A stretch of 64,000 bases of DNA. Source: Clavelina lepadiformis. Taxonomy: Eukaryota > Chordata > Ascidiacea > Aplousobranchia > Clavelinidae. The stretch covers positions 3,393,856-3,457,855 of the forward strand of contig NC_135246.1 of assembly GCF_947623445.1 (NCBI RefSeq), in the 5' to 3' direction. Shown in pieces: positions 6,516-62,875 of this stretch (the stretch's first letter is position 1; each line of letters begins with the position of its first letter). The notes beneath the pieces were generated by a model, which had not been told where the DNA came from, did no database searches, and was given only the letters and a program-made list of their open reading frames with translations. A program made the translations under genes and the position numbers.

Positions 6516-9500
6516 TATATATACGATACACGTGTTTGAAGGGCAGAGAGCCTTTGAGCACTAATAAAGCTTGTTGTGTGCAATCATTGTGTGCGACGCG
6601 ACAAACAATACATGGTGTCTCAGAAACAAAGTGTCTTTTTTGCTGATCCTTGATGGAGTGATCCATGAGAACAAACTCGTTGACATATGTCCAGTCTGGA
6701 ATAAGTGTGACTGGTGAAACAGGTACAGTGGTCCTCAGTCTTCTTCCCATCAACAATTCCGCAGGACTCCATCCACACTACAGTGGAGTTGACCGGTATG
6801 ACAGCAGTGCCAGGTATGGATCTTTCGATTTCATTAGAAGACTTTTGGTTGTTTGAACGCTGCATTCAGCCTCTCCATTGCTCTGGGGATTGTGAGGACT
6901 ACTGGTAGGATGACGGAATTCATACGTTTTTGCAAACTCACGAAACTTGAACGACGAATACTCTGGCCCGTTGTCGGAGAACAGCTCTCCTAGTATCTCG
7001 TGACGGGCGAAGATAGATTTCAGATGATTGATCACGTTTTCGGAGGTGGTGTTTTGTCCCAGTAAGGCTATTTCGATATATCTCAAAACGTAATGTATTA
7101 CTAGGTATTTACGGTTATTGAATTGAAATATATCACCTGCAACTTTTTGCGAAAGATGTTTAGGAAGGTCCGAGCTAATCATTGGTTCTGTATGGGAACG
7201 ACGGTGTTTTGTGCAAACAGGGCAGTTTGTTACGAAAGCTTCCCCTTCTTGATTTAGTCCAGGCCACTATACACTGGATCTTGCAAGATCCGACATTTAA
7301 CAATGCCTTGGTGACCTTGGAGAATCTTAGAGAGTATCACGTTGCGTAAAACTGGCGGAATGTAAAGGCGATTGCCTCGTAATATCCTTGTTCAATAAAC
7401 AGCTCGCTCGAGATACGTTTAAACGGAACCAATTTATAGCAAACCTTCGACGGCCATTCGGTTTAGCAAAACTTGATTGCTTGCTGAGCTATACCATCGG
7501 ATGAAACTGCCTTTCGAATTTGCTCCAGTCGTTTGGTTGACGATGGTAAGGTCTTGATCACAGCATCGACATGCAAGTCTATTTCTTGTAAAAGTCGTTC
7601 GTCTTCTGCCGTAGTTTGGAGAAGAGCGCTTCTTAATAATGTGTCAAGTATCACCAGATTCCTTCCTGCGACATGAATAACGTCATAATCATACCACATC
7701 AAACGCTTACGAAATCTCTGGATCTTTGGAGACAGTTCATCCAGATTTTTGCTTCCCAGAAGACGAAGGAGTGGTTTGTGATTCATCTTTAGCGTGAAGG
7801 TTATGCCGATTAGATAGTCGCGAAATTTTTCACAGGCCCATGTGGACGCTAGGGCCTCCTTCTCGATCAGAACATAATGTTTCTCAGTGGCTACCATTGC
7901 TCTAGTCTAGAAGCATATGCAACTGGTAAAAGATCGTCCTATGGTCGAGAACATCGATCGTCTTTTGGTCGAGAACAGCTTCTAGGCCCCAGTAAGAAGC
8001 AGTAGACTTAGTGTAACTTTGGCGTTGACTAGATTCTGTAATACAGTACGCAAGCGATCGTCATGCTTGTTTTGAGTAGTTCCAAAAACTAAAATATCGT
8101 CCATCTTGCAGAGAACTCCTGGAAGTCCGTCCAAAGTTGTTGACATTTGTCGTTGGAAGTGCTCCGGAGCAGAAGATATTCCGAAAAGAATCTGTTAAAA
8201 CAAAATCGTGCAAAGGGCGTGAAAAATGTTGTCAGCATTTTGGAGTTTTCCGCAAGGAGTATCTATCAAAATCCTGAATTCGCGGTAATCTTAGTGAAGA
8301 CTTTAGCTCCAGCGAGTCTTCCAAGAGTTTCGTCGACAGTAGGTAGGCAGTGTCGCTCGCGGCAAATATTTTGTTCAAGTGCGTGAAGTCAACACATATT
8401 CTGACATTACCGTTCTTTTTTGGTACCACTACCAATGGTGAAAACCATTCTGTTGATTTAGTCACTTTCGTGATAACACCCTGACGTTCCATCTTCTGGA
8501 GTTCCTCCTTCACTGCATGCTCTAAGGGGATTGGTACTCGGCAAGGTGTAGACAGGCAGAACGGTTTTGCTTGAGGTTTAAGCTGTATTCGGTACTCTTC
8601 GCCTAATTTTCACAGACCTGCGAGAAGCAATGGAAATTTTTGGGTATAGTTTTTTATGTGGTTGACGGTGTTAACGTGGTCGATTGCATGAAAGACTTTG
8701 ATGGCAGGCCACCCTACGAATAGTTATTTGAAATTTTTGATGACGTAGACGTCTTGCTCCACGGAAGCATTTTTTAACCGTAACTTCACATAGAACTTCT
8801 CTTTGACCTTGAGCTTGATGTTGCTTGACCCAACCAGCATCTGTTCCACCTGATTCACGACCACATCAGGAATGGATTCAAATTCGTTTTCCCCAACCGC
8901 TGTAACATCGGAACCTGTGTGGATACGGAACTGAAGAGAAGCATTGTTAACGGAAACCTCTGCGTTCGAGGCATCCTCTATGATAGCATCGACATGCATT
9001 CTCCCTAGAAACAAGGTTTTGTTATCCCTATTCATGAGCTTCACCGAATCGATGCTACGTTTCTTTGTCATACACACTTGACGGAAGCGTCCCTTTTTTC
9101 CAAAGGTATATCACGTTGCACTTCGCCGGGCAGTTCCTTCGTTGATGTTTTACCCTATTACAGCGCTACAGGCAACCAGAAGCGTTGCTTCTCAACGGTT
9201 GTTCTCCTTCGGTTGTCAGATGCCTGGATTGTTGTGTTGGTCGTCTGCAAGTTTCGCGAATATTATCGACATCTAAACTTCTTCTGGCTTACGGAGAGAT
9301 TTTTTCTGATGCCGGATAGACTCTGTGCTGCGAACAATCTTAATTGCATTTTCTATCGTCAGATCCGAGTGTATTTGCAAGCGTTCAGATAAACTTGAGT
9401 CTAAAATGCCTACTACAATCCTATCTCTAATCATCTCGTCACGAAGGGCTCCGTAATTACAACCTCCTGAAAGAGTGTGCAAAAAATTAATGAATTCTCC

Positions 9501-12081: not shown

Positions 12082-15000
12082 TTAATTTGGGCGAATTCGT
12101 TTCAACAAGTATTTCACTTTCGTTTCGATGTAAGGCGAGTACAAGATGGGGTTAAATGCACTGTTGATGGGGAGGAGCACTCCTGCAGTGAATATCTCAA
12201 CTCCATCTGGAAGCTTCACTCCACTCACACTTATGTAAGCCATTATGCAGATGGGAACCCAACAAAGAAAATCGGAAACAATGATGCGAGCGATTCGTTG
12301 ATTCATTTTGGCATTTTGCTTCTGCGCGTTGTCGCTTTTTATCGGGCGATTTTTCATTTTCCAAGCGATTAAGCCGAATCCAGAGAGTACAAAGAGAAAA
12401 GAAAGGAAGTTGAAGGTTACTATGACAATGGAATAAGTCCAGAAACTATCACTGCGATTCACATATAATCGTGGCATACACACACTTGTAGTACCGTAGT
12501 AACCGATCTCACCTCTGGTAGCGTATTGGGGAAACTTATTATTTAAAAAGCTTTTAACGCTTTGCCAAGAATTTTCATTGAGATCCTGTGACGTGTTTGT
12601 AAGAATGACCAGACGACAAACAAAGTCTGTGACATAATCGTGAGTGACTGTGTCAGATAAAGAAAACTCGTTAAGAAAAAAAATTTTTGATTTAAAGTAA
12701 CGTGTGGTGTTAGATACGAGAGCAATGATGAAAGAAATTATCCAAGAACATATTGCAACAAAAATCCAAGGTTTTGCAGACGCATTACGAGCTTTGAATG
12801 GATATAAGACAGCATACAAGCGGTAACCGGTAAGAATAGCCATGAGAAAGCAGGAAGTTTGACTGGAAATCATGCACAGACTTCCGGCCAATGAGCAAAT
12901 TGTGCTCGATCTCCACTCATAATCGAATTCGGAGTATTTGCCTGAAAATTGAACATCTTTCACTAAAATAATCATCAAATATATTCCCATTAAACAGTCA
13001 GAGACAGAGAGGTTGATGATTAAAATATGGTTGCATAAAGATGCATTTCTGTTTTTACTTTCGTGCAGCTGAACAATGGAGAATATGGCGACGTAAACGT
13101 TTCCCACAATGGTGAGTATAATGATAAACCACAGCCATATTTTTAGACAGAGGTTGCTAATCATATCACGAGCGGACGAGAATATTCCTGGAAAAAATTC
13201 ATCTGACCCATCAACACAGTCTTGTTTACCATTTAGAACTGAAGACTTTGGAATCGATGTCAAATTTCCTGTCTTTGTCATACAATAATGTCGTTTGGAG
13301 CAGTTTTTTTCGTCAATTCCATCATCACAGTTTTCCCTACCATCACATTTTTGTAAGACGTCGATGCTATGCTTCTCACCAGCTTTGCATTGAAATCGCT
13401 TCGGACAGTTTCTTTCATCAAATCCTTTGGAGCAGTTTGTGTCTTGCAAGTACTTCCATGCCTCATCAATGTAACCATCGCAGTATCGATCTCCCATCGT
13501 GAAGTAAGTGCGACAAGTATCATTGCAGAATACTGCAGAATTGGGACACGATTTGCACTCATCAGAGAAGTCGATGCATTCTGGTCTTCCATCACACTGG
13601 ACAGCACGTGTGACACCCTGTTTGTTCTTGCAAATTCTTAAATCTTGATCAACTTGCAATAGTTCATTATAGTCCCTGAAAGAACGCACAGTACTAGAAA
13701 CGTCATCTGATTCAGTACTCCAGAATTCAAACAAGTTGCATTGCGATGACCCAAAGAAGATATTCAAACACTCCGGCAAAGATGGATTTTCGCAGAGACA
13801 TTCGTCTGATAGATCGAAACAATCAACGACACCATCACAGACTTGCTTAGGCGAGATGATCAAGCGATTGTCCAGACACTTAAAGCAATGAAAGGAGCCA
13901 TCACTGCTAAAACAAAGATCAGAATTATCATAACATTGTGGGATGTCGTCGTATAGATTCCATTGAGGAAGGACGCATAGAATGGTTGAGAACTTGGCCG
14001 AACACTTAAATCCAGGTTGAGAAGTTATTTCATCAGTTCCGTCATTGCAGTCCTTCTTTCCGTTGCAGAAGTTTTGATTCAAGATTATGGATTGGTCAGT
14101 ACATTGGAATATTCTGTCAGCGTTGCTAGCTGAAGTTTTTGTGCCAGAACAGAAAGAAAAGCAAACCGCGTCAGTCATGTTGCAATCATACTTACTACAT
14201 TCTAATAAAGGTACTCTTGTACAAGTGGAATTGTCACACCAAGGTGAGATACAAAAGCTTTCATTTTCTAACCTAATAACTTCAAAAGTACAAAAACCCC
14301 AACTCAGTTTGTCAAATGATTTGATATACTGTTCATCATTACGACTATCACAGTCAAACTTTCCATCGTTGACGTACTCCATCGAGATACATCCTTCCTC
14401 CACATTGCAAGTAGGAAAGTTCTTAAGGAAGCAGGAACAGGTGAATTTGTCTTCAGCACAAGAACAGTTCATTTCATCTGATGAGTCTGAGCAATCCTTT
14501 CCTGTATTACATCTTTCTATAAAAATAAAGATGTTAAATTTTGATGCACAATCTAATAGTTTTATCAATAAGTCTATTGGTTAAATCTATTTCAACGAAA
14601 ATTATGTGAAAACTGAACATATTGTCTTAAACTGATTTGTTCTTAAGCACAATGACATTCGTGTTCGCACATTGAAGTTTAACTCATATCCCTTCTATTT
14701 GTACACAAAATGAATAAGTGCGCTTGATATTCTGAACCCATTAAATGTTTACAAGTGCAGGTTCTATTTAATTGTAAATCTTATAGTAAGTATGTTTTTC
14801 ATCGTATACCCAGACTTGATTTGGCCTACTTCCTATTTGCTTAATATTTGTAACGCTTGGCACTTTTTCATCTCGTATATGTAAAACTTTGACCAAGTCG
14901 AGGAGAAGCCGCGTGAAGTCCACCTTTATGTTCGTCTTTAGTCAAATTTTTAAGTGTCTTGCGACACGTCATTATTATCTCAGTGAGCGTCGAACTGACA

Positions 15001-18000: not shown

Positions 18001-21000
18001 GTTCATAATCCTGCCCGATCGTCTCGGTCTACTTTCATTCAATTGTGTATCAGTTCTTTCGTATCTGTTGGATCCATTTCGATAAGCTGGTATCCTTTCC
18101 GGCAGCAGGTGCGAAATTTCTTTCAAAATTCGTTAGTTTTATACTCAACAAATATTTAGAAGGCGGCACTTGTTGACCCATTTGCTTTGGTGATCAAGGT
18201 GTCAAGTCATGCACAGATACAGTTAATTCTTTGCCATCTGGATGTTAGATGCATATAGATAGCGTTTTCTTAGTGGGCTTTTAAAATTGATTGAAATTCT
18301 CTCCAAGAGCTGTGTTGCTTATATAAGATCAGTGCTTTTAAAATTATAGAACAGTGGCTTAATCTCAGCACAGATTAGACTCTGGGCAAAAATTTTCTAA
18401 AGACCGTCTAAGGTATTTTGCCTTTACGAGATAGTGTAGACGACAGATCCTAGGATGACGGAAGTTCCTGTGAAATTCCACGAGATTACTGTTGTACACG
18501 ATAATGTTGCCCCTAGAGAATTCACTCTCGAGAGCATGTCATGGGCCGCATTGATGTCCTTCCAGGTTTACGAATGATTTTGTATTAAATTTGATTCTTT
18601 TTGTAGATGTATTCACGATCTTGTACGAGAATTGTCCTACTTCAATCCTCTACTGCTGGATGCTTGAAGTCTTGATTTTATCATTCTTCTGAACACTGAA
18701 CATGTACGCTGCCGATCTTTGAGCAGTGAATGGTTTGTTATGAAAGTAACGGGCATGAGTGAACTTTTACAAACGTTTGCAAGTATCAGCTTCTACGAAA
18801 GTAGTTTTGTGGTGCAAAGAGCACGAAAGTAAAACGATTAAAAAGCACATTATGATTTTTCACGGGGCTGTTATTAATAATAGCAACAATTCTCCATTAC
18901 GGCTCGAAAAAGTTAAAAATTTAATGTTTTTTTCAATCCTATAGGTCGAGTTCTGCAGTCTAAAAATGCTTTTGATAAGTCCATGATCAGAACAAAGTCA
19001 GAAACCATCAGAAATATCTGAAAATCTGCGATTAATTACGCATCAGATATAAAGCCAATAAACAAATTGTTTTATTTGTCCTTTGTTAAAATTTACTTTA
19101 GATGGGGATATTTAGATTTAGGTGGGGATATTCCCTTGCCAACACTCCAGATGCCAAATATGACCGTACATTTACAAAACTGACCAATTCTAATCTAATT
19201 AAAATCTATGGTCTGACTTGGAACCCAACGAAATTAAGTTTGGATTCTTATTACCGAGCTTGGATTATTTCGGCGCAAGAAAAACCGGTTTGTCTTTACA
19301 TGGGGCTTGAAATGGGAAATAGTGAGTCAACCTTATATGGTTACGGCAGAGCAGGCGATTTATTTTTACCGAACTAAAAAAAAAACAAAACATAAACCGA
19401 CTTCAACAAAGAAACTAAAAGTAAACTCTAGCACAAATTTAATTCACAATACTGTGTTTGGCTAATACTGTATTTCACATTCAATAAAACTTAGCGCATA
19501 TGACGTCACAATGGATTATTGCCAAACAACGTAGAGAAATGCGGATAAAACTTAAAGAAAATTATTAACAGAACTACACCTCCTTTACAAGTGTAAGTCA
19601 TATTATTAAACAATCTTATTTGACCATGCAGTTAACATTAAGATTAAGGTGTTATTGATGAGTTAGCATCGAATGAAAAATATGATTCAAACAAAATCTA
19701 AATAACCTATGCATAGCTTTCATTTTACTTTAAAGTAATAAATTTAAATCTCAGAAAAAGTTTTAAAAATTTTGTTTAATCAACGACAACAAATTCAACT
19801 TACCCTCATCATCGTAGCATCTCCATTTATCCCCGCAAGTGTCGTTTTCTTTCTTGTAACAATCACATTTGTGTTGTGGGCAACCATCGCAAATATCTTC
19901 ATCGCTGTTATCCTTGCAATCATCATATCCATCACACTTCCATGATGCTGGTATATATCGACCATTGTTGCATTGGAATCCTCCCCTGCACTTCTCATTA
20001 TACTCATCTCTCATATTCACACAATCCAACTCTTTATTACAAACTTTATTTTCATTGATGCATTGATAAAATCTCACACCGACTCCATCATAGCACTGAT
20101 ACTCGCCAGGACCGCATCTACAATCAATTTCGTCAGCTCCATTCAAGCAATCTGGTTGTCCGTCGCAGACCCACGATTGTGGTATACACTCACGGGAATC
20201 CCCTTTTGCATCATCCTCACACCTGCAGTTGAACTCGGATGGTTGGCAGCGTGGACTGTAAAAGTGGCAATGACCTAAACACAAACAAAATATTCTTGCA
20301 GGAATATCACCATGCATCGAATATTTCCTCAGTTATATCTTACCACCATATATTACGTCATATTACCATATATTACCATATATTACGTCACATGTTATCA
20401 GGGCTAACAGACAAGGGACAGACACACGCACACCGCCTATTACGACAGTCAGTAATATGTGACGTCACATGTCGTCGTTTAAGCAGATGACGCCAGTCAA
20501 GGCTTATAACAGAATTTGTTAAAATATCAGCAAATGTTGCAATAGAGGTTTCCAATAAAATACCAGAAACTAATTAACTAAACCTGGAATTTATTCAAAC
20601 ACGTAACTATCGGACCGATATTTTCTAAACATGCAACTGACAAACCGACATAGTGCTAACAAGAAGATATGTTATGTCCAATTCTTGATGTCTTGTCTTT
20701 AACAGGCAGCCACAACACGATCACTCAGCAAAATGTGAAAATTTATAAGAGAAGCAAACAATTGTCATGATAACAAATCCGTCTGATAAACCGCCATCCC
20801 CACATGCCCAACAAGTATGAGGTGTTCATGACGTGATCATTCTTTATTGGCTATCTAGGGTAGACGTCGTATAATACTGATAATAATAATTACAAAATGC
20901 TGCTCCTTACACCGAGCGCTAAACATCAAAATCAAGTTTGATCTATTATTGTACCATTATTTCTTTCTATTCAAGAATTCATTTTGGAGCGCAAATTGTG

Positions 21001-47941: not shown

Positions 47942-50900
47942 TTAATCGTCCAGTGTGCTGCTGCTCGCGAAAGCAGTTCGCAGTGTTTCGAAGAACATCA
48001 CTTCGTCATCATTTGTTTGATCAAATCTCAGGAAGTTGTAAAATTTTCGGTTGAAAGTTCGATGAATTAATTCTGGAACGCGAGCTGGTTCTTCACCATG
48101 CCACTCCACTAATATCAGTTGATCTCTTCCGGCAGAGTGTTGAAGTTCCTGGAGCGCCGGCAACACGAATCTGAATAATAAAATATAAACGTAATTAAAA
48201 CATTTGCACTGATATTATTGGTATTTTATGCATCTCTATCCAAAACGTTATGACTACAAGTTTACTTGCAGGTCGGAGTGTCGCAAAAGTTGCCAGAAAA
48301 TATGACGATTGTTTTTCGACTCTTCGTGATAAGACGGAGAAGATTTTCATTTGGAGACATACCAGCATCGATATCACGACCAGCTAAGAGAAGTTCAATG
48401 GAAGGGTTTCCGCTAATCATCCCAGGTACCAGTTTATCATCCACCCAATCACCCAGTTCCTCATTACTGTGGTCAAAGAATACAAAAGCTTTCTTGCCTT
48501 CGTGTGCAGAATATCTTGAAGAAACATCGCTTGGTTTCAATGCTTGAACTCTGAAATATTCATTGATTTTCCGAAATATCAATCTCTTGAACCATTTGCT
48601 ATAACCAAAACTGCCGCAAAACATGAATAATACAAAGAATATTGTGAATACGATGGTGTACTTGAGATGTGTCTGCAAATCACACGATGTGTTAAATCCA
48701 TATCGCGACACAGAGCGACCACGCAAATTCAGCGGGGAATGGCACGCCACACACCCGCCATAATATTGGTCAATGTCCGAAGTGCATTCTGGATAAAAGC
48801 CAGGAAGCATGGTGTTGTCACTTGCATCAGAATTATACCAACGATAAAATTTCTGCCATTCATGACAAAAACAATCAAGTTCGTTCCATCTCATGTCTAA
48901 ATACTGAAGTGAATTCAACAAATCTTTGCCGAAAATACTTGAGTCCAGTTGATTTATGAAGTTGTGACTGAGATCAATGATTTCAAGTTTCAAATGCAAA
49001 AAGAATCCTGGTTGAATAAACTTGATTTGGTTATGAGCGATGGTAAAATGTTTCAAGTTGGGGCAAACGGTCAAGTTTCCGTTTAGATCAATGATATTAT
49101 TGAAATCTAAATTTAAGGAATGCAACTGGTTCAAGATTTTTAAAGATGTCGAAGGAAATATCGCCAAGTTGTTATGGCTTAAGTCCAAGATTTCAAGATG
49201 ATTTAAACCTTGCAACAAATAATGCAAAATAAACGAATCAATCTCGCAATTTCTAAGTACAAGGGATTTGAGTTTGGGCATAAACTTAAACAAACCTTTT
49301 CCTGTATATGTAGATTTACAACCCAAATCATTTTGCGTTATATCAAGTTCCAACAGTGATGTGTTTTCATCCAATTCACTTAATGCTTCGAAATTTACAG
49401 GAACTGTACAATCTGGCATCCACCATTTCAACTTAATTTGGGAAGAAGGATTCAAATGCAATAGAAAACTAAAATCAAGAGCTATGTCGGAGTGTTCCTC
49501 AACAAAGTCAATCCGACGAAGACTGGATAAGCTGCTAAAAGTGAAAGGATCAATTTTGTTAATAGGATTATGAGACAGATCGATGCTGCACAAATTTATC
49601 AGGTGTTTCAAATCATCTGATCTTATCGCTCTTATTTGGTTGTGTGATAAATCAAGAATAGTTGTCGTCGATAACAGAAGTTCTTTTTGTTCAGATATGG
49701 TTGTAATTTGGTTGTTAGAATAATCAAGTAAACTGTTGTCGTCGCATTCCAAGACCGGTATTTTAAAACGTTCAATTGTGTTGTCCTGTTCGTGAAGATT
49801 TCCTGGAAAAATAAATTGTTTTTGTAAAGTTTTTGCTTCTAAAATTGGAGATTTTCCTTTGCGTAAAATGTTGCCACGAAAAGTCAATTGATTGTTCCAG
49901 GCTCTGATGGATTTAAGATGACGTAATCCAGACCATGCGTCAGAGGAAATGTGCTCAACATTGCAACAGGAGATATCGATTGTGGATAGATGAGTTAAGT
50001 TTGATAATTTAGCAAAGGATTGATTGTCGATTTCATAGAATTGAACAGAATATAGGATTGCATTTAGGGCCATTTCGTCATTCCCGAAATATATTTTTTC
50101 AAGCGAAGACAAAGAAGCAAAAGTTTGTCCCAAACGAAGTAATTTGACTGCCGTTACAAAGCTTGCTGATTCCGAAGAAGCCATGTTGTTTGTGGACAAA
50201 TCAACATATCGTAGTTTTTGTAGATTGACCAAGTACGTTGGTTCGAATATTGTCAATTTTAAACTATTACAAGAAAGATCCAGGATTTCAAGATTTTTGT
50301 TGTTTTTAAATATTCCGCACGGTAAAAACTGAACCGCATTCAAGGAAAGATTGAGGTACTTGAGATGTGGGAGTGGATCAAACACACCGTCTTCTATAAT
50401 TAGCGCTTTGCGTGTGGTACAAGCAATGATGTTCAAAACTAATACTTCTAAGCTTGTTGCATTCACAAAATCATTTGTTCTCAAACGGCGGTAGGGATTC
50501 AAAGAAAGCGTAAAAATTTTTAGTTGGTTTCCAAGTAAATATCCCGGTATCATTTTCCAGTCGTTGCTATTCAAATCCAGAATTTGTAAACTGGAAGATA
50601 ATGCCTGCGTTAATGTGAAGTTTTTTGGACATACGTTTCTATAATGATCACAATTTCCCGCACTAATTAGAATACTCAAGCCGGATAACAGCCTCAGTTG
50701 TGCGGTGACGTCACCAAGTAGGGTGAAACTTATGTCCAATCCCTTTATAGAAGTCGGTAGTTGTCGCGGAAACTCACGAAGATTGTTATCAGCCAATCCC
50801 AAGAATTTCAAATGAGCAAGATGTTGCAACGCGCCTGGTTCAATGTGTAGATCGCTATTGCATGGTGGCAATATGGCGGTTTCAAATAATACAGGTAGGC

Positions 50901-51258
50901 AATTTGCATTAAAAATTAACCAAGTTATATTTGGATATGAAAGAAAATCGGACGCCCCAACTCGTCGAATCTCATTAAATCCGAGATTTAATGCTTCCAC
51001 GTTAGTTGGCAAATTTCGAGGAACCTCTGTTAGTCCTCGCCACGAGCAATTAATGTAAACAAAATTGTTATCAAGCCAAGGAGCAACTTTTAAATACACC
51101 TCTTTTTCGACGACATCTTCCATCGGGGAAAAGGCGAACTTTGACCGCAAATATATTCCAGGCACACTGTCTACTTCATCGCAGGGATTCAAGACATTTC
51201 TTGACGATCCACGACAAAACAAAAGAAATTTCAACAACAATATAAGCAACCAGCCCAT
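47942..51258 (-). CDS. Toll-like receptor
   Basis: Two exons, 48266-51258 and 47942-48170, are joined across an 95-base intron inside the TIR domain (TGCAA|GTAAAC donor, TTCAG acceptor). The product is 1,073 residues. The start is placed at 51258 because the following MGWLLILLLKFLLFCRG is a good signal peptide; nothing further upstream begins with ATG. The ectodomain has many LxxLxLxxNxL repeats, an N-terminal Cys region and a C-terminal CxC cap (ELDCFCHEWQKFYRWY). A membrane helix lies at about 867-887 (YTIVFTIFFVLFMFCGSFGY) and a TIR domain at about 920-1060 (KKAFVFFDHSNEELGDW, LLLAGRDIDAGM, KTIVIFSGNF). The BB loop reads RDIDAG where most TLRs have RDxxPG. It should act as a pattern-recognition or adhesion receptor signalling through TIR adaptors. 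Ligand and subfamily are unknown. Confidence 0.93.
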
Positions 51259-53499
51259 GTTGTGTGAAAGCAAATTACCGGCGAGCACTTGCTACAAAGT
51301 TTTAAAAACAGAAAAATACAATTAAATTTCCTTAAATTATTACCTGAAATTTTATTGATTCTTAACTTCTGAAAATATTTTTCTCGGATAAATACGTCAT
51401 AATGCTATACTGGAACTGCTAACTTAATATTTATCTTTATATGATTGCATCCTTCGTTTATTATGTATGATTTACAGTTGCTCACCTGGTTTATTTGACC
51501 TCTAATAGGCCTTTAACTTAGTATTTCTCAAAACGATGCAATTCTAATTCCAAATTTTGTTGCAAACGAATGTGCAACTCAACACTAAAACTAAATTCGA
51601 TCTTCCTTTTTACTCTAAATAATTTCTTAATTTGACTTATGCTGGACAAGGAGTGGGGAATGCAGCCTTTTCAATAGATTTGTGCGTACTTTTAACTATT
51701 TGCTTGCCTCAGAAAAAACAGCAGGAACAAAACCCAACCTAGCAGCGTTCATAGTGACGTTATCTGAAAAGTATATTCAGCTCGAAGGATTGTTTGTGAT
51801 GTAATAATTGACACAACACAAGCAACAAGGAAGTGCTTGATATTATAACAAATTTGCATAGTTGGAAGCTCTGCTGTATAAAGCTCAATGAAACTTCTGT
51901 TCCCAATGAACGAAACGCATAAGAAAAAAATATCAAAATATTGTTTTCAATATTTCCTGAATTTAAAGCCCATAACGTAACATTCTGTCGCTAAATATTC
52001 ATTTCTTTGGTATGTGTAATTATTTATGATCGAATCACTCCAAGGAATAAAAAATATATAAACGCTTTACCCTGCTTGCCCTAGTTGACCAATGGCTCGA
52101 GAAAACAAACCGCTCCTCTGCTGCATGACTCACAAGAAGTCACTGTTTCTCGATTCCACTCTGTCGCCCTGCCAAAAGATGCCGACTATATTGCCACTTT
52201 GATGGCGCCGACACTGTTCTAAAAAGCTTGGAATTCGTTCCAAGTTGGAGCTCCAAGGACTTTTAGAAGCCGAGTGGGCGCGTGAGTAGAAAAAGTTTAA
52301 GAAACACTGTTTTAGAGAATTTGTGCTTAGTTATTGACCGGATCGAAAAATAGATTTGGTTTCGTCAAAGTAGGATTGCGGTGATAGCGCTACTGTGGTT
52401 TATACCCAGAAAAAATATTGCCACCGATCACAGTTATAGTGAACAAGATATTTTACAGAAAGATTTAAATCACTGTAAAATTCTAGCGGCGAGCTCGGCT
52501 TTACCGCCTAACAAATTGTTTCGTTTACCTTCAATTGTTTGTACATCGTGGATTAAAAGACGTTGCATTCGCTGCGCTTTAAAACAATTATGACGCAAAT
52601 GTGTGTTTTTGTTCGGAGTTAATTGTGTTTGAGCTTGGCTCTGTTTGAAGCCAAAAGAGAAGTCAAGGTTAAAAGGTCATCCCATTCTGCCGCTTGCATG
52701 AAAATTCTCCGCCCATTGTATTGGAAACCACTGGACTAAATAAACACTCTTGTAGATCGTAATCTTTTAACAAAAATAAATATAATCAATGAAGACAGCA
52801 AAGCAATGATCAAATAAAAACAAAACTAGTCAGCCAAAGACTTAAACACAGTTGTTCTTCTCCACCAAGACATGGTTTGCAGATGAACTGTGCTCTTCAG
52901 TGACTGAACTTTTATCCGAGGTCCTCCCCGATTAATCGCTACTGTAAAGCGATGAAATAAAATTTATAACAACATTGTGACGTCATCAGTAATATTGAAC
53001 ACGGGTTACTGACGTTTCATCAAGCATTGGTTAATGACCTGAAATTTGTTACAATTTCTTGAATAGACGCAATAGATCTTGATCATGTTTTATCAACTAA
53101 TGTTGAACACAATAATTGGAGTCTCATTTAATTTGTCACATCGCTAGTAACACGTGGAAATTCGAAAGGAACTCGTTGGTACAACTTATTTTCACTCTTC
53201 ATATATTCACAGTCACACATTCACTTACCACAACCGACAACAAGTTACTGTTAACATGGGGCTTCTCTTAGGACATCAAACTGACAGTGTTATCCCAAGA
53301 AAGGAGAAAAAGTGATTGAATGAATAATTATATAAACTTTTGTTACTTTTAAAATATTTGATGTTGAAGTTATGTCACATGTACAACTGTCATTTAACCA
53401 GGTAGAATGAATGGGCATGCTTATAAGCAGCACCTTATTCACGTTACGTTAATGTTTTAAATCTCTAACATGCCGTTTTCTGGAGACTGCACTCAGCTT

Positions 53500-54343: not shown

Positions 54344-55123
54344 AGTGTAAGATTCAGACAGAATAACGTGATCGTTCGAAATTATTTACGAGTAGCGAGT
54401 TAGTAGGAAATCATTAATACAATTGGCTACACAATAGGAATTTGCGAAAAAAACAGAAAATGGTGTAAACTGTTTGTGGTCTTAAAGATCGTTAAAGTAC
54501 TCAGTCTACAACCTGTCAAAAACTATAACCGTTAAAACAAACTGAGTTTGACGAAAACATCGTCAAAATTAGCCAAAGTAAAGCGTTAACCTTTAGATAA
54601 AGCCAGTTTTTGAGCAAAACACCATGATTTGAAAACTTTTCACATGGTCGGTGGATACACGCTCTTTTAAGAAGCACCCATTTCAACAACTTGTGCCTAA
54701 GTGGGTGTGGGAAACCCCCAGTCGGCATATACACCATCTTATAACAAAGACATCGCAAGTAACAATAAATACACACTGGCAAATTTAAAAGTATATTTTA
54801 CAGAAACGTACGTTTACTACCTAAAACTGGCATATCCAACCTTTATGTTATCTCCATGTAAAATTCAATTAGTTTTGAAGAACGAACGTATTTTACGCTT
54901 AAATTAAATTCGGTGTGACGCTTAAATTAATTTCCTACCTACTTAAATGTATTTCATAAGTAGCATGAATTGCCTCATGATGACCTCTTAAAACCGTTTA
55001 ATGACGACGACACTCGCCGTTTTATGGAAAATGTGATGTGCTGTGTTCGACGAAGAGTTAAATTTAATAGTTTCAAAAGCAACTAATAAAGGATTTGTAT
55101 TAAATTTTAAACTAACGACGAAG

Positions 55124-58100
55124 ATGGATTTCTTATTTCTGGTTTCATTTCTCTTGCTTGGTAAGTCGTAAGTGGTGTTGATTGATTTAAAACTGCCTTG
55201 AGTCAATGGATGTGCTTAGATTGTCGAAACAATTTTGTATAAAATACCTCTCTAGGTTGCCTGCAATTCATAAATATGTGGAAAACTTTTCTACGCTATG
55301 GCAATCTTTGTATGTTTTTTTCTGTGACGATATACTGTACTTAGCAAAATAAACGTAAAGCTTTTGAAAAAAAAGAAAATTTCATGTCAAGCACATTTGG
55401 AATAATATTTAAAAAAATAATTTTCAACAAAGGAAAACAGAAGTATATTCTTAAAGTTTGACTGGTCTAGAATCTATTGTATATCTCAGTACAGTTTCTA
55501 AATTGTTAAAAAAGGAGGTTTTAAATTTTTTTCAGTGCCTTTGACATAGAAAAGCAGCCTGCGTTGTATATCCGTCAATTTATATGCGTTTGTACGCAGA
55601 CTCGTCGATTGTATTCGGTTTGACTTTAATAAACGAACATGCCGTGGTACGAAAAGAAGTAACAACCTATCTGAAATGCGTAGCAGATCAAGCAGATATG
55701 ACGCATGATGCGTTTAAACGGGTAATGGACACAGGTACATAGCCTAGTCTCATCCCCCGGAAAGCTAATATGATAATTGCATATTGTTAATTGGTATTAA
55801 AGCAGCTTTAAATCTCTGTTCTTGAATTGTGATTTGAAAATTGGCTTTATAATTCTGTTTCATCATTTTTTCGGAACTTACAAAACTTCTCAACCATCTT
55901 ACCCACTAGGTCAGTTTCACTGATGCTTTGTGAGTTCTAAATTGTCCAACTTCTTTTATCTTAAGTTTTTCAGTCAGTTTTTGACATACAGGAACCGGTC
56001 TAAAAATGCCCGCCATGGCCCTTGTCGGTCCTATATCACCAGAATCTTGGCCTGGAAAAAGACTTTCGTTGTTCCCAGAAGCTGGCCCCGAACGAACTGG
56101 TATATTTTCATGTGAAGCAAAAGACAAAAATACAAATATCCTGACCAAGGCCGTAGCCATCAAAATAGGTGATCCTTTGAGTTTTGGACTCTACTTGACA
56201 TGTTTAGGCTTAGCGTGTGGGTTTTACCTCGTATTAAACGGCAGCTAAATCTTCTTTTGCTTTAAAAGTACAAAAATATCGAATAATGCTGATGTAATTT
56301 CGTCTCGTTGAGAACTTTCCCACCCTAATGCTCTATTCCCAACCTTTTCTGTTATAGTTGAATTCTTTTTAGAGATTCCTTTATCTTCTAGCTTACCATT
56401 CCGTCGAATGTTTTTCACAATGTGTACCTTATAATACTTTTGACTTTGTGCAACTGTACGTGACCACACAAAAAATGTTTTACCGCATTGATTGTTAAAA
56501 TTACTGAAAGTGCTTCTTTTCATTTGCCGAGGTATATTGCATGTCAAATTACCCTACATATTTTTAATCATAATTATCTGTCTAACGTTGTTTTCAATAA
56601 GATAGGCACTGCTGGAGGAATATGGCCAAAACATTTCACATACGTCGCAAATGTCGGTGATGAGAATGTCAACTTAACTTTTAGTGCTTTTGATAAGGAC
56701 TTGGACATCGTATGGAGATTTGAAGGCGGCATAATCGCCGAATCGTCACTAAGTCATCGAATTAGGCGTGTATCGAGAAGAGACGCTGGAGTTTATGAAT
56801 GTTATTCGGCACCAAGTGACAGCAACCGGAATTCATATCGGTGGGATTTTGATTTTAAAATTACATGTATCATGTCCCTTGTATAGCTATTCCAACGGAA
56901 AATAACGCAGCTTCATATTGTTATTGTATAATGTTAGCTACTGTTACTTTTCACATATGAGCATGACTTGAACTTTATACTCATACGTTTACCGGCACCA
57001 CAAATTTAAGGGTATTTTCTTGAAATAAATTGAAATCAAAAATGATGCCAAGCCTATCAGTTTACATATGTAAATAAGTCGATTTGAATTTGTTATAATT
57101 TCACCTCCATTACTATAGCACTGTGTTGCTAAAATACAATATATACAATTTGTAAAATTGTTACATGAACATCATTTAAATTGTCGCTAATAGCCAGCTA
57201 CTTCATGGATTGACTTAGGTCACGTTAAAGTCAAGATTAGTTTTACAAGTTTCTTAAATGCAGTAAACTTTTTGTCCTCGATAGGCCCGCAGGGGGTCAA
57301 GCAATGCTTCGTCTTATTGTGAGAAATTGTCCTCCAAATAAATGGAATTGGCCAGATTGTTTGTCTGATTGCTCTTGTATAAATGGAGGAGCTTGTGATG
57401 AAGTAACCGGAGATTGTGTGTGTCCTCCTGGTTTCCATGGTAACAACTGTGACGAGGGATGTGGCGGGAACAGGTCTTTGATCATATCTACTGCTACTGC
57501 TGTGATTGTGGATATTGCCTAGGCTGCTTGTTAATTGATATTTGTTACTGCAAGAATTTCGAGACATCAAAAATTTATTCCTTTAAAAATGGATTGTATT
57601 ATTATCAGCTTTAGTGAATTTTTGTTATAGAATTGGATAATATAAGTATCGTACTAGGCACATATGTCTTATAAACAAGTAATGGTATGCTTAAGCGTAA
57701 CACAAGCAGCAAAATAACATCAAGGCTTCTATTAGAAATGTCATCTGAACTTGTCTTATGTGTTATTTTGAACCAAATGTTTTCAGTTATCTTTCCGTTA
57801 ACTTCTTTCAGTTGTACAAACCGTCAACTGCACATTGGTTTGAAAACATTGGAAGAAGTGTTGGTTTAATTTGGAGATAAAGTCTATTGTGTATCAACTA
57901 AGTATTTTTTAACGCTACTGTGTAAAGGTTCGGGTCAAAGTGTCAATTTCAGTGCAAAGCGGGTGGTTCGACGAATGGTGACGACGCTGAGGAATGCAAG
58001 GGAAGACAATTCTGTTTACCAGATCCTTACGGGTGTTCATGCGCTACCGGATTCAGTGGACTGGAATGCCTTAACGGTTGGTTGTGTGCTGTTTTGTGTA

Positions 58101-60614
58101 AAGAACAATAACTAAATGCCACAGCAATTTGAAATTTGCTATAAAAATTAAGTTTACACAGATATATAGTATGTCAATATCAATATTGTATAGGTTGAAG
58201 ACTATGTAAAAAGCAAACTAAAACATTACAACAGACAACATTTATACACCGTTTGTATAAAGAGTAAAATATCTTAACTGTTCGTGGACTAATAATGAAT
58301 TATGTTTGAGGAATATTTTATAATTATATTATCCATGACTTTTGCGTGATTAAAAGAGTATGCGTGACGAAAACATGCGTCAGTTGAAACTCATTAATCC
58401 GCCTTTTTTTACAGCGCAGTAAAATGTCCGAAGCTTAACACCGCAGCTCTTGTCAATCTCAACATAACGTTGTAGATTTAAATATATTTTTCTGTATTTT
58501 TACACATCATGAGATTGCCAGTTTAACAGGTGGGTTAAAGTAAAGACTTTCTATTTGTAGGCTGCCCCAATGGCCAATTTGGAGCAAACTGCGAGCAGAC
58601 CTGTCACTGTAAGCGTCCAGATTTATGCAATCGCTTTACCGGGTCTTGTACCATGGGATGTGCTAGCGGGTGGAAGGGACCGTCTTGTCAAACAGGTTAG
58701 TGCGCTGTTGGTGCATTGAATATCAATATCTTGCTTTGCATTTTGTCAAATCATTGTAGAGTGCCAGTCCGGCCAGTGGGGTGAAAATTGCGAGAACGAC
58801 TGTCACTGTCTGGACGGAGAAGACTGCAATTCAGTCAATGGCAAGTGCCCACGCGGATGTGAACCGCCCTACACAGGAAATAGCTGTCAGGTATAGGCAG
58901 AGACCTGTAATTGTAACCATCGCAAGTTTTGTTACGCTTCATGTCAGTGGTTTGTATTATCTTCATAATTGAATATTGCGAACCATCCTTATTGACATAA
59001 TCAAACGGTATCGGTATAGAGGTGTTGGTAAAGGGTAACTTTTGATCGGCTGGGTTCTGTTATTTGTTCTAATAATACACCTTTGAATTAGTTAATGTAA
59101 TTTTTCAATACTTAAAATATCAAGAAAGAATTTTTATTTCATCTTCTCTGACTCATAAAATTGTGTTTCAGGTCGATGCGATCGACGATTGTTCTTCCGA
59201 TCCCTGCCTCAGAGGAGGACGCTGCGTGGATGCAATAAATGAATACAAATGTGAGTGTCTCAACGGAACAGGAGGAGATAGATGCGAGACGGGTGAGACA
59301 AAATGAGAATGTTGGAAATTATTTGTCGTTTATGGAACTGAGCTTAAAAACAGTTGTTTTCGTGGCCAAGGTTTTACTGTGTTTTTGTAGTTAATACGTC
59401 ATACGTGACAGTGTTTCTTATGACAACTCTATTGATACAGTTACTTCCTTTCAGACCATGACGATTGCCAACCTAACCCATGTAGTAACGGTGGTCGATG
59501 TGAAGACACTGGTCGATTGAAATTTCTTTGTCATTGTGCGGCTGGTTTCACGGGAGAGTCTTGCGAAACCGGTAAATAAATTGCTTAATAAAATAAAGGA
59601 TTTACGTCATAAATAAGATAATTACGAAATAAATAAATTACGACGCGAGCATTTAATATGGCAGTGCAGTACTAAGAAATGTTTCATACAGTACATAAAC
59701 ATACGCATTACTATAGCTTACTTGTTGAAGAGTAATAGCTAATGCAGCGCTAACTCACAGTGTGTGTTATGCAGCTGCTTAATGTAAAATAATTAAATAA
59801 AAAACGATGTTATACGTTGCAGACATTGACGACTGCCAAAACAACAAATGCCAAAATGACGCTGGATGTGTCGACGAAGTAACAACCTATCATTGCGAAT
59901 GCGGGGAGGGGTACACCGGGAGATATTGCGAGAGTAGGTGTATTATTAGATTAGGCAACGGTGATTTAAAGCTTTAAATACGGGGCACTAGCCCAGGTAA
60001 TTGTTGAGTGTTATGCTGCTACCGGTGATAATTTTTGATAACTAGACAGATTTTTAATATACAACTTCCTTCCTTAGTTAACTTGCTCTTTGACATTTGA
60101 ATTGGCTTTAATCTTGTACTTCAATGGTTTACGATCTATAATTTGCTAAGTTTGATTAAATATAATTTTTAATAGTTAAGCTTTATTGCTTTGGATTTTT
60201 TTGTACTTTTTCAAAAATGGCAAAGATTGTGGTTCAAAAGTTACAATAAGTCCCAATTTTTTTTAGACATAAAATTCTTTTTTCAATTGGTCGTTTTTAT
60301 CTTTGCAAAGATGCCATTTGTAAAACTTTCCTGTCTAAAACTTAATAAATGCAATCAGCACAATGCAAGCCGCATAAGTAAATAAACTTTGTTTCAAGTT
60401 TAATTTCACAGAATTTTCATTTCGCTGACGCATTTTAAATTGTTCTTCAACAGCACCATTGAGCGCATCCAGTTCTCTCAACTTTATTGTGGTGGTTGCG
60501 ATCTTGCTGGGAGCTGTTGTCGTCATAGCAACGACCATAACAGTCTGGTACGTTTGGTCAAGAAAAAATAAGACCAGGCTGCAGCATATCACCGTAGGCA
60601 AATCAGCTTGGTGA
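55124..60614 (+). CDS. Tie/TEK-like receptor ectodomain without kinase
   Basis: Twelve exons keep one frame: 55124-55160, 55600-55734, 55992-56168, 56606-56866, 57293-57473, 57928-58076, 58561-58695, 58760-58890, 59172-59292, 59455-59571, 59823-59933 and 60454-60614. The sum is 1,716 bases, or 571 residues. The order is signal peptide ([13 protein letters not shown]), Ig domain (YLKCVADQ to GIFSCEAKD), second Ig ([11 protein letters not shown]), Tie-type EGF modules, three ordinary EGFs (two starting DxDDC), a membrane helix ([20 protein letters not shown]) and a 22-residue basic tail ending [23 protein letters not shown] and [15 protein letters not shown] closely match vertebrate TIE2. TIE receptors bind angiopoietins and continue with fibronectin repeats and a tyrosine kinase; both are missing here. 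It may be a decoy or adhesion receptor, or one splice form of a larger gene. A kinase would have to lie beyond 64000 or elsewhere. Confidence 0.87.
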
Positions 60615-62875
60615 ATGCACGAAGTGGATCGATACCTGCGGAGATTTACTCCCGGATATTTACGTCTGCTTTTAAACGAAGTCTCATTTTTCTTAACTTT
60701 TACTCCCGTTTAAGACATTCGTGGATTACCTTTGATACCGATGTTATTCTTATATTTTTGTTTTCGCTGTATATCCTGGGCCCTTACACACAAGGCCAGC
60801 ATGGTAGGAGTTTCTAAGAAAGGAGTCTGCACCGGCCCAGGAATGATGACATGAGCAGAATCTTTCTTACATGTAAATAACCAACGTAACAAGCTTCGCT
60901 CGATTGCACTTTAACTTATGATCAATTGATTATGCTCAGTATTTACGTTTTGACTGATAAATCGCTTAATTTCACTTGCTGGTGTCGAAGCATTTTTGCA
61001 CCCAACAAATAAACTATGGGGACCATGGAAAAATACTAAATTATTCCAATTTACGTTAAATAACACGTCTGCCATGTCGTGGCCTGCACGAAAGCCTGAT
61101 CTGTGTAGAAATGAGAGATAAAAGTGAACTACGGTAGATTAGAGTTTTCTAATATTATTTTTGTGATAAAAGATTCTTTGTCATACAGAAGAGCAGAAAA
61201 ACAATGTGATCTTCCATGATATTTATTGTAACGAAACATTGATGCAAAATTCAAATGCGCATATATTATGCTAAATCCTAAATATACACAATTATTAACT
61301 TTCAAATATTTTAATGCGTTTAAACAATTATACATTAATTAAAAAAAAGAAAAGCAAATCTACTGATTAAATCATAGCGATAAGTTGTCTCCAACAGAGC
61401 CTAAATAAAATGTAAAATTGTCAGAAACTCATCTAATGAGTTAATGTTATGATGTAGCATGTCTTCTTTTAGCTAAATAAATACATAACTTGATAATTCA
61501 ACCTTTGTGAATATGACCTTGATCAACAAGGTAATGGCCTGATGGTTAAGAACACACAAATTTGTTTAAGATATATTACCGGCAAAACGATTTGAAAGAA
61601 ATTCACACAAAGTAACCTAAAAGTTTAACTTTTAAAAAATATCACAATAATCTTAGATATCCGACCTGAATATGGCTGATATTTCAATTTCTAATTGTTT
61701 CACATAACAAAAAACAAGCAAACGATGCCAAAACATATAACCATAACACACCAAACGCAATATGTATAAAGCAGAAGGCGTATTAAAAGAAGTATTAGTT
61801 CAAATGGCGTAAAGATTTTAAATAACCGCGTCGTAAGACACGAAACAAAACTTATTATCATAGCAAGAGTTAACGAGTAACGTATAACTAAGTTCATATT
61901 ATAGAATAAACAGGTGCTTCATTATTCTTTAATCGTAATGTTAACATGTCAACGATGTTAAAATAAACAAACAATGAATGCATGGTTGGCCAATATAAAT
62001 AAGCCAGTATATTTTGTTAAACCGAAAGATGCGAATGACGTGATCAATGGCTGAGCATCGGCAGACAACATGACCGAAAATGAACGTATTTACAGAAAAA
62101 GTTATAGCTACGTTGTGATAAGCATTATCTTGCTGCTTACTAGCTGCACTTTGTATGGCGGAATTTGTTCGCGTTTGCTCATAACTGAAATGTTCTTCTC
62201 GGAAAAAATATCTTTTATAGGAGCAGCTACCTCTCACGGTTAATGCGCGAAACACTCCTCAAATCAAAATATATCCTTGATTGACGTGTGCTTGTGGTGG
62301 GTAAAGTAACGCACTGTCAGTTGCTGCAGATGGGGTTAGTTTGCACAGTTTCCATTTTCTGATACGCCTGTCAAAGTCTAGTGAAGTGTTTTGGCAATAT
62401 TAATACGATGTGAGATGCGATAATGCGATGTGATCTCAAAAAGTTGGAGATTACGCTAAAACAAACTTTCAGTATCAAACAATTTACAACAAACAACAGG
62501 CGCGTGCTTTAGCAGACGAGTACAAAATACTGTACATGCACAAAATTTGAGAGTGAACTAATGTAATTTGAGACTGTTTGAGTAAAACGTTTTTTAACTC
62601 TGCAACTAAAACCAAACATAAACTAAAAAAAAATGTAGGGCTGATGATGACTTTGCAACTTGCTTTTACCAAGCCATAAAAACCAACCTCAGCTAGGCGG
62701 GAAAGCCTCAGAAAACTTGTGTAATAGAAGTGAAGCGCTGCCAGCAAAAGATTGGTTACACTGTAAACACTTAAAAGGGTTCGATCGGCGTGAAAGTAAA
62801 CACGGCCTAATCATTGCTGACAAAGTTCCACTCGCGAAATACGCTTTGCACAAGTTGTATTTCGGATGCAATCTT
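60615..62875. other. unassigned stretch downstream of the Tie-like gene
   Basis: After the probable 3' UTR (to about 61030) no exon is supported. I looked for kinase signatures (GxGxxG, HRDLAARN, DFG) on the plus strand and saw none. A minus-strand stretch at 62860-62690 recalls a decayed C2H2 zinc finger but is not convincing. Confidence 0.4.
61008..61013 (+). promoter_or_regulatory. polyadenylation signal after the Tie-like gene
   Basis: AATAAA lies 394 bases past the stop at 60614, giving a plausible 3' UTR. It supports the gene really ending here instead of splicing on to a kinase exon. Confidence 0.45.

What the first reader, a model, noticed from the sequence alone, without database searches (positions are those of the whole stretch)
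55124..60614. A Tie-like receptor that ends just after the membrane, with no kinase
The ectodomain is recognisably Tie/TEK: two Ig domains followed by the special EGF modules with [14 protein letters not shown]. The last exon supplies one membrane helix, a short basic tail and a stop, with a poly(A) signal 394 bases on. The fibronectin repeats and kinase of TIE1/TIE2 are absent, and three ordinary EGF repeats take their place. A natural kinase-less Tie could act as a ligand trap or adhesion molecule, or could show the receptor's parts before they were joined to a kinase.
Basis: partly seen in the sequence, partly recalled or inferred. Interest (0 to 1): 0.78.

Follow-up and report, generated by a model that had tools for sequence, protein, structure and literature searches.

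The report
Kinase-less Tie receptor in sea squirt
A sea squirt gene encodes the outer half of the blood-vessel receptor Tie, anchored in the membrane but with no kinase, and the same genome holds a second such gene and one Tie receptor with a kinase.

Summary
A 12-exon, 571-aa model (55124-60614) encodes a signal peptide, Ig-Ig, four Tie-type EGF modules with an exact [14 protein letters not shown], three Notch-like EGF repeats, one membrane helix and an 18-residue tyrosine-free tail. It matches the human TIE2 ectodomain at E=6.3e-41. No kinase or FN3 sequence was found in the window or 30 kb beyond it. Chromosome lengths point to Clavelina lepadiformis.

Chromosome 5 holds a kinase-bearing Tie: kinase 427 bits to TIE2, 256 to RET. 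Chromosome 7 holds a second kinase-less Tie-like gene with a long tail. The window gene is best read as one of two non-catalytic Tie paralogues beside a real Tie, in layout like FGFRL1 beside the FGFRs. "Parts before the kinase" is disfavoured, not excluded: a four-sequence tree is unresolved (56%). In the two EGFs found, the kinase-bearing Tie lacks the signature motif that both kinase-less genes keep. Decoy, co-receptor or adhesion function is inferred; no transcript, ligand or other tunicate was tested.

The parts
55124..55160 (+). exon 1: start codon (AAGATGG), signal peptide [12 protein letters not shown]
   Evidence: in-frame stop upstream at 55034 and hydropathy
55600..55734 (+). exon 2: first half of Ig1 (TTYLKCVAD)
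   Evidence: similar exon NALIKCVSD in the paralogue L032; not covered by the TIE2 alignment
55992..56168 (+). exon 3: second half of Ig1 (GIFSCEAK)
56606..56866 (+). exon 4: Ig2 (ENVNLTFS...RDAGVYECY)
   Evidence: Pfam ig E=7.8e-4, below gathering score
57293..57473 (+). exon 5: end of Ig2 ([11 protein letters not shown]2 has TRLIVRRC) and Tie-EGF1
57928..58076 (+). exon 6: Tie-EGF2 with [14 protein letters not shown]
58561..58695 (+). exon 7: Tie-EGF3
58760..58890 (+). exon 8: fourth Tie-type EGF, beyond the TIE2 alignment
   Evidence: module type by eye
59172..59292 (+). exon 9: ordinary [13 protein letters not shown] fits the calcium-binding pattern (pattern recalled)
59455..59571 (+). exon 10: ordinary EGF
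59823..59933 (+). exon 11: ordinary [13 protein letters not shown] fits the calcium-binding pattern (pattern recalled)
60454..60614 (+). exon 12: membrane helix, short basic tail [18 protein letters not shown], stop
61008..61013 (+). AATAAA poly(A) signal
   Evidence: offset 394 from 60614

Best explanation
The gene is a kinase-less Tie paralogue: a Tie-type ectodomain (Ig, Ig, Tie-EGFs) joined to extra EGF repeats, one membrane helix and a tail too short and tyrosine-free to signal by itself. It most likely works as a membrane-anchored, non-catalytic receptor. It would bind a partner, perhaps a fibrinogen-domain (angiopoietin-type) ligand or matrix, and so hold it at the surface, compete with or present it to the kinase-bearing Tie of chromosome 5, or support adhesion, much as FGFRL1 is proposed to act beside the FGFRs. 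Shown by sequence: gene model, TIE2 homology, no kinase, FN3 or third Ig found, a second kinase-less gene, and a kinase-bearing Tie in the same genome. Inferred: expression, ligand, and the decoy, co-receptor or adhesion role.
For: One consistent 12-exon frame. TIE2 ectodomain E=6.3e-41. Kinase and FN3 queries from the chromosome 5 Tie give no hit at E<=1 in the window, the next 30 kb or the paralogue locus, while they recover their own gene. In the own genome all 35 candidate stretches were scored and 25 matched: 7 are this gene, 5 lie at C7:9114425-9116000, 1 at C5:24436593, 10 on C3 and 2 on C4. The paralogue L032 keeps [14 protein letters not shown] and has its own membrane exon and a 225-aa tail piece with no Pfam family over its cut-off; no TIE2-kinase hit at E<=1 in L032, which reaches about 3 kb past that tail. 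The chromosome 5 Tie has six frames with FN3 matches (two over Pfam's cut-off), a third-Ig match below cut-off, and a kinase scoring 427 bits to TIE2 against 256 for RET; one EGFR entry lies between at 308 bits but with no stretch passing on its own. Fibrinogen-C domains, the ligand class of Tie, are abundant. FGFRL1 is a precedent proposed as a decoy (PMC2754479, abstract and Background read).
Against: No transcript, protein or binding data. Ig2, where angiopoietin binds TIE2 (recalled), is poorly conserved, so angiopoietin binding cannot be assumed. The same FGFRL1 paper reports no interaction of FGFRL1 with FGFRs in one assay and a fish phenotype not consistent with dominant-negative action, so even the precedent is not a settled decoy. 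The tree that would show descent from a kinase-bearing Tie is unresolved (56%). No second tunicate could be searched.
Confidence: 0.58

Rival explanations
1. An old family of kinase-free Tie-like adhesion proteins that predates the fusion of the ectodomain to FN3 repeats and a kinase; Clavelina keeps both the old form and the fused receptor.
For: Both kinase-less genes keep the signature EGF2 motif (14 of 14 and 13 of 14 letters as in TIE2), while the kinase-bearing gene lacks it in the two EGFs found. The two kinase-less genes are only 40.4% identical, so the form is not recent.
Against: A kinase-bearing Tie is present in the same genome, so coexistence needs no such ancestor. TIE2 itself has the motif, which puts it in the kinase-bearing lineage. 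The tree is unresolved.
Confidence: 0.2
2. A pure adhesion or scavenger receptor that borrowed the Tie ectodomain and has nothing to do with Tie signalling; the added Notch-like EGF repeats do the work.
For: Seven EGF modules, two of the last three fitting a calcium-binding pattern (recalled); short basic tail; the top PDB hit of the whole protein is DLL1, best stretch 392-522; the paralogue has a long tail without a Pfam family over cut-off.
Against: The Ig2-EGF1-3 block matches TIE2 at E=6.3e-41 and 2.1e-36 in the two genes, which suggests a constraint tied to Tie's fold or partners.
Confidence: 0.15
3. The last exon is an alternative 3' end of a longer gene, and other transcripts continue into FN3 and kinase exons.
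For: Exons under 45 aa or across locus borders were not in the Pfam scan; soluble or truncated isoforms of receptor kinases are common (recalled).
Against: 150 of 160 forward open frames of 45 aa or more gave no FN3, Ig or kinase family; the best match was a reverse transcriptase. Chromosome 5 Tie kinase and FN3 queries give no hit at E<=1.
Confidence: 0.04
4. A silent or decaying copy.
For: No expression evidence was available; three weak donors.
Against: Twelve open exons with regular EGF cysteine patterns (by eye), start codon, membrane helix and poly(A) signal present.
Confidence: 0.03

Closest known systems
TIE2/TEK and TIE1 receptor tyrosine kinases (vertebrates)
   Same: Ig1, Ig2 without the first canonical cysteine (by eye), Tie-EGF1-3 with [14 protein letters not shown] (compared with TIE2; TIE1 not compared)
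   Different: No third Ig, no FN3 repeats, no kinase; a fourth Tie-type EGF and three ordinary EGFs instead
Clavelina kinase-bearing Tie on chromosome 5 (L033)
   Same: End of Ig2 with LVVRG, EGF1 and a second EGF
   Different: Has FN3 repeats and a kinase; only two EGFs were found and its EGF2 lacks [11 protein letters not shown]; its Ig1 was not identified
Clavelina second kinase-less gene on chromosome 7 (L032)
   Same: Similar Ig1 exons, Tie-EGF1-3, a shared three-residue insertion in EGF3 relative to TIE2, more EGFs, one membrane helix, no kinase found
   Different: More EGF modules and a cytoplasmic tail of at least 225 residues
FGFRL1 / nou-darake (kinase-less relatives of FGF receptors)
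   Same: Receptor-kinase ectodomain with a membrane helix and no kinase, beside full receptors; proposed decoy (PMC2754479)
   Different: Different receptor family; three Ig loops; function itself debated

Membership tests
Tie receptor tyrosine kinase family | Ig2 to Tie-EGF3 ectodomain block homologous to TIE2 | tested here: met
   2gy5 E=6.3e-41, query 85-359
Tie receptor tyrosine kinase family | Signature [14 protein letters not shown] in EGF2 | tested here: met
   14 of 14 letters
Tie receptor tyrosine kinase family | Third Ig and FN3 repeats before the membrane | tested here: not met
   EGF modules in their place; FN3 not found downstream
Tie receptor tyrosine kinase family | Cytoplasmic tyrosine kinase | tested here: not met
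   Stop 18 residues after the helix; no kinase found in the window or next 30 kb
Tie receptor tyrosine kinase family | Binds angiopoietin | not testable with these tools
   Needs binding assay
Kinase-less receptor relatives (FGFRL1-like layout; a resemblance, not a membership) | Receptor-kinase ectodomain plus helix without kinase, with a kinase-bearing relative in the same genome | tested here: met
Kinase-less receptor relatives (FGFRL1-like layout; a resemblance, not a membership) | Binds the ligand of the full receptor | not testable with these tools
   Needs binding assay
Notch/Delta family (considered for the last EGFs) | DSL or LNR domains (feature recalled) | tested here: not met
   Neither among the 7 families listed by Pfam at E<=1

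The most novel reading that the evidence does not exclude
Tie function in tunicates is split over two kinds of chain. The kinase-less paralogues keep the conserved recognition block, while the kinase-bearing receptor no longer shows it, so binding chain and signalling chain may work together, possibly reading the very large fibrinogen-domain repertoire of this animal.
Probability: 0.12. Interest if true: 0.75.

Novelty: new variant of a known kind. Interest (0 to 1): 0.5.

Why it matters
Tie receptors stabilise vertebrate blood vessels (recalled), and their origin before vertebrates is unclear; a 2019 paper lists the ancestral bilaterian gene of TIE1/TIE2, judged by fly or worm, as 'Unknown' (PMC6389290, passages seen). 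A tunicate with one kinase-bearing Tie and two natural kinase-less Ties gives a testable system for how the receptor is regulated in a close relative of vertebrates. It also warns that 'TIE1/2 orthologues' named from transcripts, as in Botryllus (PMC8882763, section 14 read), may or may not carry a kinase.

Tried and rejected
Downstream kinase/FN3 exons: not found. Six kinase-bearing frames of the same genome gave no hit at E<0.01 in the window plus 30 kb (no positive control in that call). Pfam on 150 of 160 forward open frames of 45 aa or more gave none; the ten left out were four overlapping the last exon and 3' end, four in L009 (three in a tandem repeat, one at the locus end) and two in L011. 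Shorter exons and frames cut by locus borders were not scanned. Chromosome 5 Tie queries gave no hit at E<=1.

Kinase clusters as hosts of a Tie ectodomain: no ectodomain hit at E<=1e-3 in the 31 loci then held, 20 of them fetched for this. The true Tie kinase was not among those; it came, where 129 of 311 candidates were scored.

C3:9421900-9428400 as a third Tie-like gene: rejected, an array of MEGF-type EGF modules without the Tie motif. The two C4 matches were not fetched.

Phylogeny of four sequences: unresolved, 56% support.

Papers: nine of the ten searches bore on Tie or receptor kinases (one search was for the genome paper). None of the rows listed named a kinase-less Tie, but most lists were cut (for instance 20 of 426) and most subscription papers are not held, so this does not show that none exists. 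Passages of PMC8870065, PMC3634500 and PMC9953650 added nothing on Tie in tunicates.
Full report
What is there. The finding's gene was rebuilt from the sequence alone. Twelve GT-AG exons give an open frame of 571 residues with one stop. Most borders were set by hand; 24 combinations were tried at exons 6-8 and two stayed open. The second (570 aa) destroys an EGF module and was set aside for that reason. There is an in-frame stop upstream at 55034 and a hydrophobic signal sequence. The end has one helix, an 18-residue basic tail without tyrosine, and AATAAA 394 bases after the stop. Against solved structures the top hit is DLL1 (5.9e-55), through EGF repeats; the next is the human TIE2 ectodomain at E=6.3e-41, from Ig1's second half to EGF3. 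Pfam finds EGF repeats and only a sub-threshold Ig.

Where it is. The window lies at C7:3393856-3457855 of a 209-Mb genome. The lengths of seven contigs, C1-C5, C7 and C8, agree with the chromosome table of Clavelina lepadiformis kaClaLepa1.1 to about 0.01 Mb (PMC10884593, passages seen), so the animal is taken to be that sea squirt. C6 and C9 were not compared. The assembly here has 95 contigs; the paper gives 102 scaffolds.

Is the kinase really missing? Six kinase-bearing frames of the same genome found nothing in the window plus the next 30 kb at E<0.01. Of 160 forward open frames of at least 45 aa, 150 were scanned with Pfam: none of the 22 families listed was FN3, Ig or kinase, and the best match was a reverse transcriptase. 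Kinase and FN3 sequences of the genome's own Tie gave no hit at E<=1 there, but recovered their own gene as a control.

The rest of the family. A search of the whole genome with the ectodomain scored all 35 candidate stretches and listed 25 matches: 7 are this gene, 5 a locus at C7:9.114 Mb, 1 at C5:24.4366 Mb, 10 on C3, and 2 on C4. The C3 places are an EGF array without the Tie motif; the C4 places were not fetched. The C7:9.114 Mb locus is a second kinase-less gene: Ig exons like those of the window gene, EGF1, an EGF2 with [14 protein letters not shown], further EGFs, a membrane exon and a long tail exon with no Pfam family over its cut-off. The fetched stretch reaches about 3 kb past that tail, shows no TIE2-kinase hit at E<=1, and ends in an open frame that looks unrelated by eye. 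Its ectodomain matches TIE2 at E=2.1e-36. The C5 locus is a kinase-bearing Tie. It shows an end-of-Ig2 block, two EGFs, a third-Ig match below Pfam's cut-off, six frames with FN3 matches (two over the cut-off) and, by eye, a membrane exon. Its first Ig was not identified. Its kinase has HRD and DFG motifs and scores 427 bits to TIE2, against 256 for RET and 244 for FGFR3; an EGFR entry is listed at 308 bits but with no stretch passing on its own. It was found with a human TIE2 kinase segment recalled from memory (129 of 311 candidates scored, so other weaker relatives may be unlisted); one search then confirmed it against the PDB.

Relations. In a four-sequence alignment the window gene is 40.4% identical to the second kinase-less gene, 37.0% to TIE2 and 34.1% to the C5 Tie. 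The tree pairs the two kinase-less genes at 56% support, which settles nothing. Shared features point the same way: similar Ig1 exons with a WPG...GP block, a three-residue insertion in EGF3 relative to TIE2, extra EGFs and no kinase. The first two could not be compared with the C5 Tie, whose Ig1 and EGF3 were not found. The C5 Tie lacks, in the EGFs found, the [11 protein letters not shown] motif that both kinase-less genes (one with a single change) and TIE2 have.

How it probably works. With no kinase and no tyrosine in its short tail, the protein cannot signal as Tie does. The likeliest role is a non-catalytic partner or competitor of the kinase-bearing Tie, or an adhesion receptor built on the Tie fold. 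Fibrinogen-C domains, the class to which angiopoietins belong (recalled), are very numerous here: 150 of 521 candidate stretches were scored, with 170 matches counted. Candidate ligands therefore exist, but none was tied to this gene. FGFRL1 is the nearest precedent for the layout; it is proposed as a decoy, though the same paper cites results against a simple decoy (PMC2754479, abstract and Background read).

Literature. [quoted passage not shown] whether these carry kinases is not said in that section. In nine searches no listed row named a kinase-less Tie; most lists were cut.

Verdict. Observation confirmed. The kinase-less reading is supported by sequence; the 'before the kinase' reading is disfavoured by the kinase-bearing Tie in the same genome but not excluded. 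New variant of a known kind, interest 0.5.

Noticed in passing
window 48262-51291 (-): A 1009-aa open frame with leucine-rich repeats and the first part of a TIR domain (profile 4-73 of 179): a Toll-like receptor near the Tie-like gene, its TIR apparently continuing beyond this frame.
   Followed up: partly
window 12082-14580 and 19763-20332 (-): Open frames with LDL-receptor class A repeats; the first reads on into what looks like a seven-helix receptor by eye, but Pfam listed no such family at E<=0.001.
   Followed up: partly
window 6778-7266 (-): Retroelement-type integrase core domain.
   Followed up: no
G000, many places, mostly C3, C5, C6, C9, C2: Very large fibrinogen-C domain repertoire in this genome (lower bound).
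   Followed up: no
L034 (C3:9421900-9428400): Long array of MEGF-type EGF modules without the Tie motif.
   Followed up: partly
L028 (C7:9556000-9565000): Tyrosine-kinase-like exons with HGD in place of HRD, possibly a pseudokinase.
   Followed up: no
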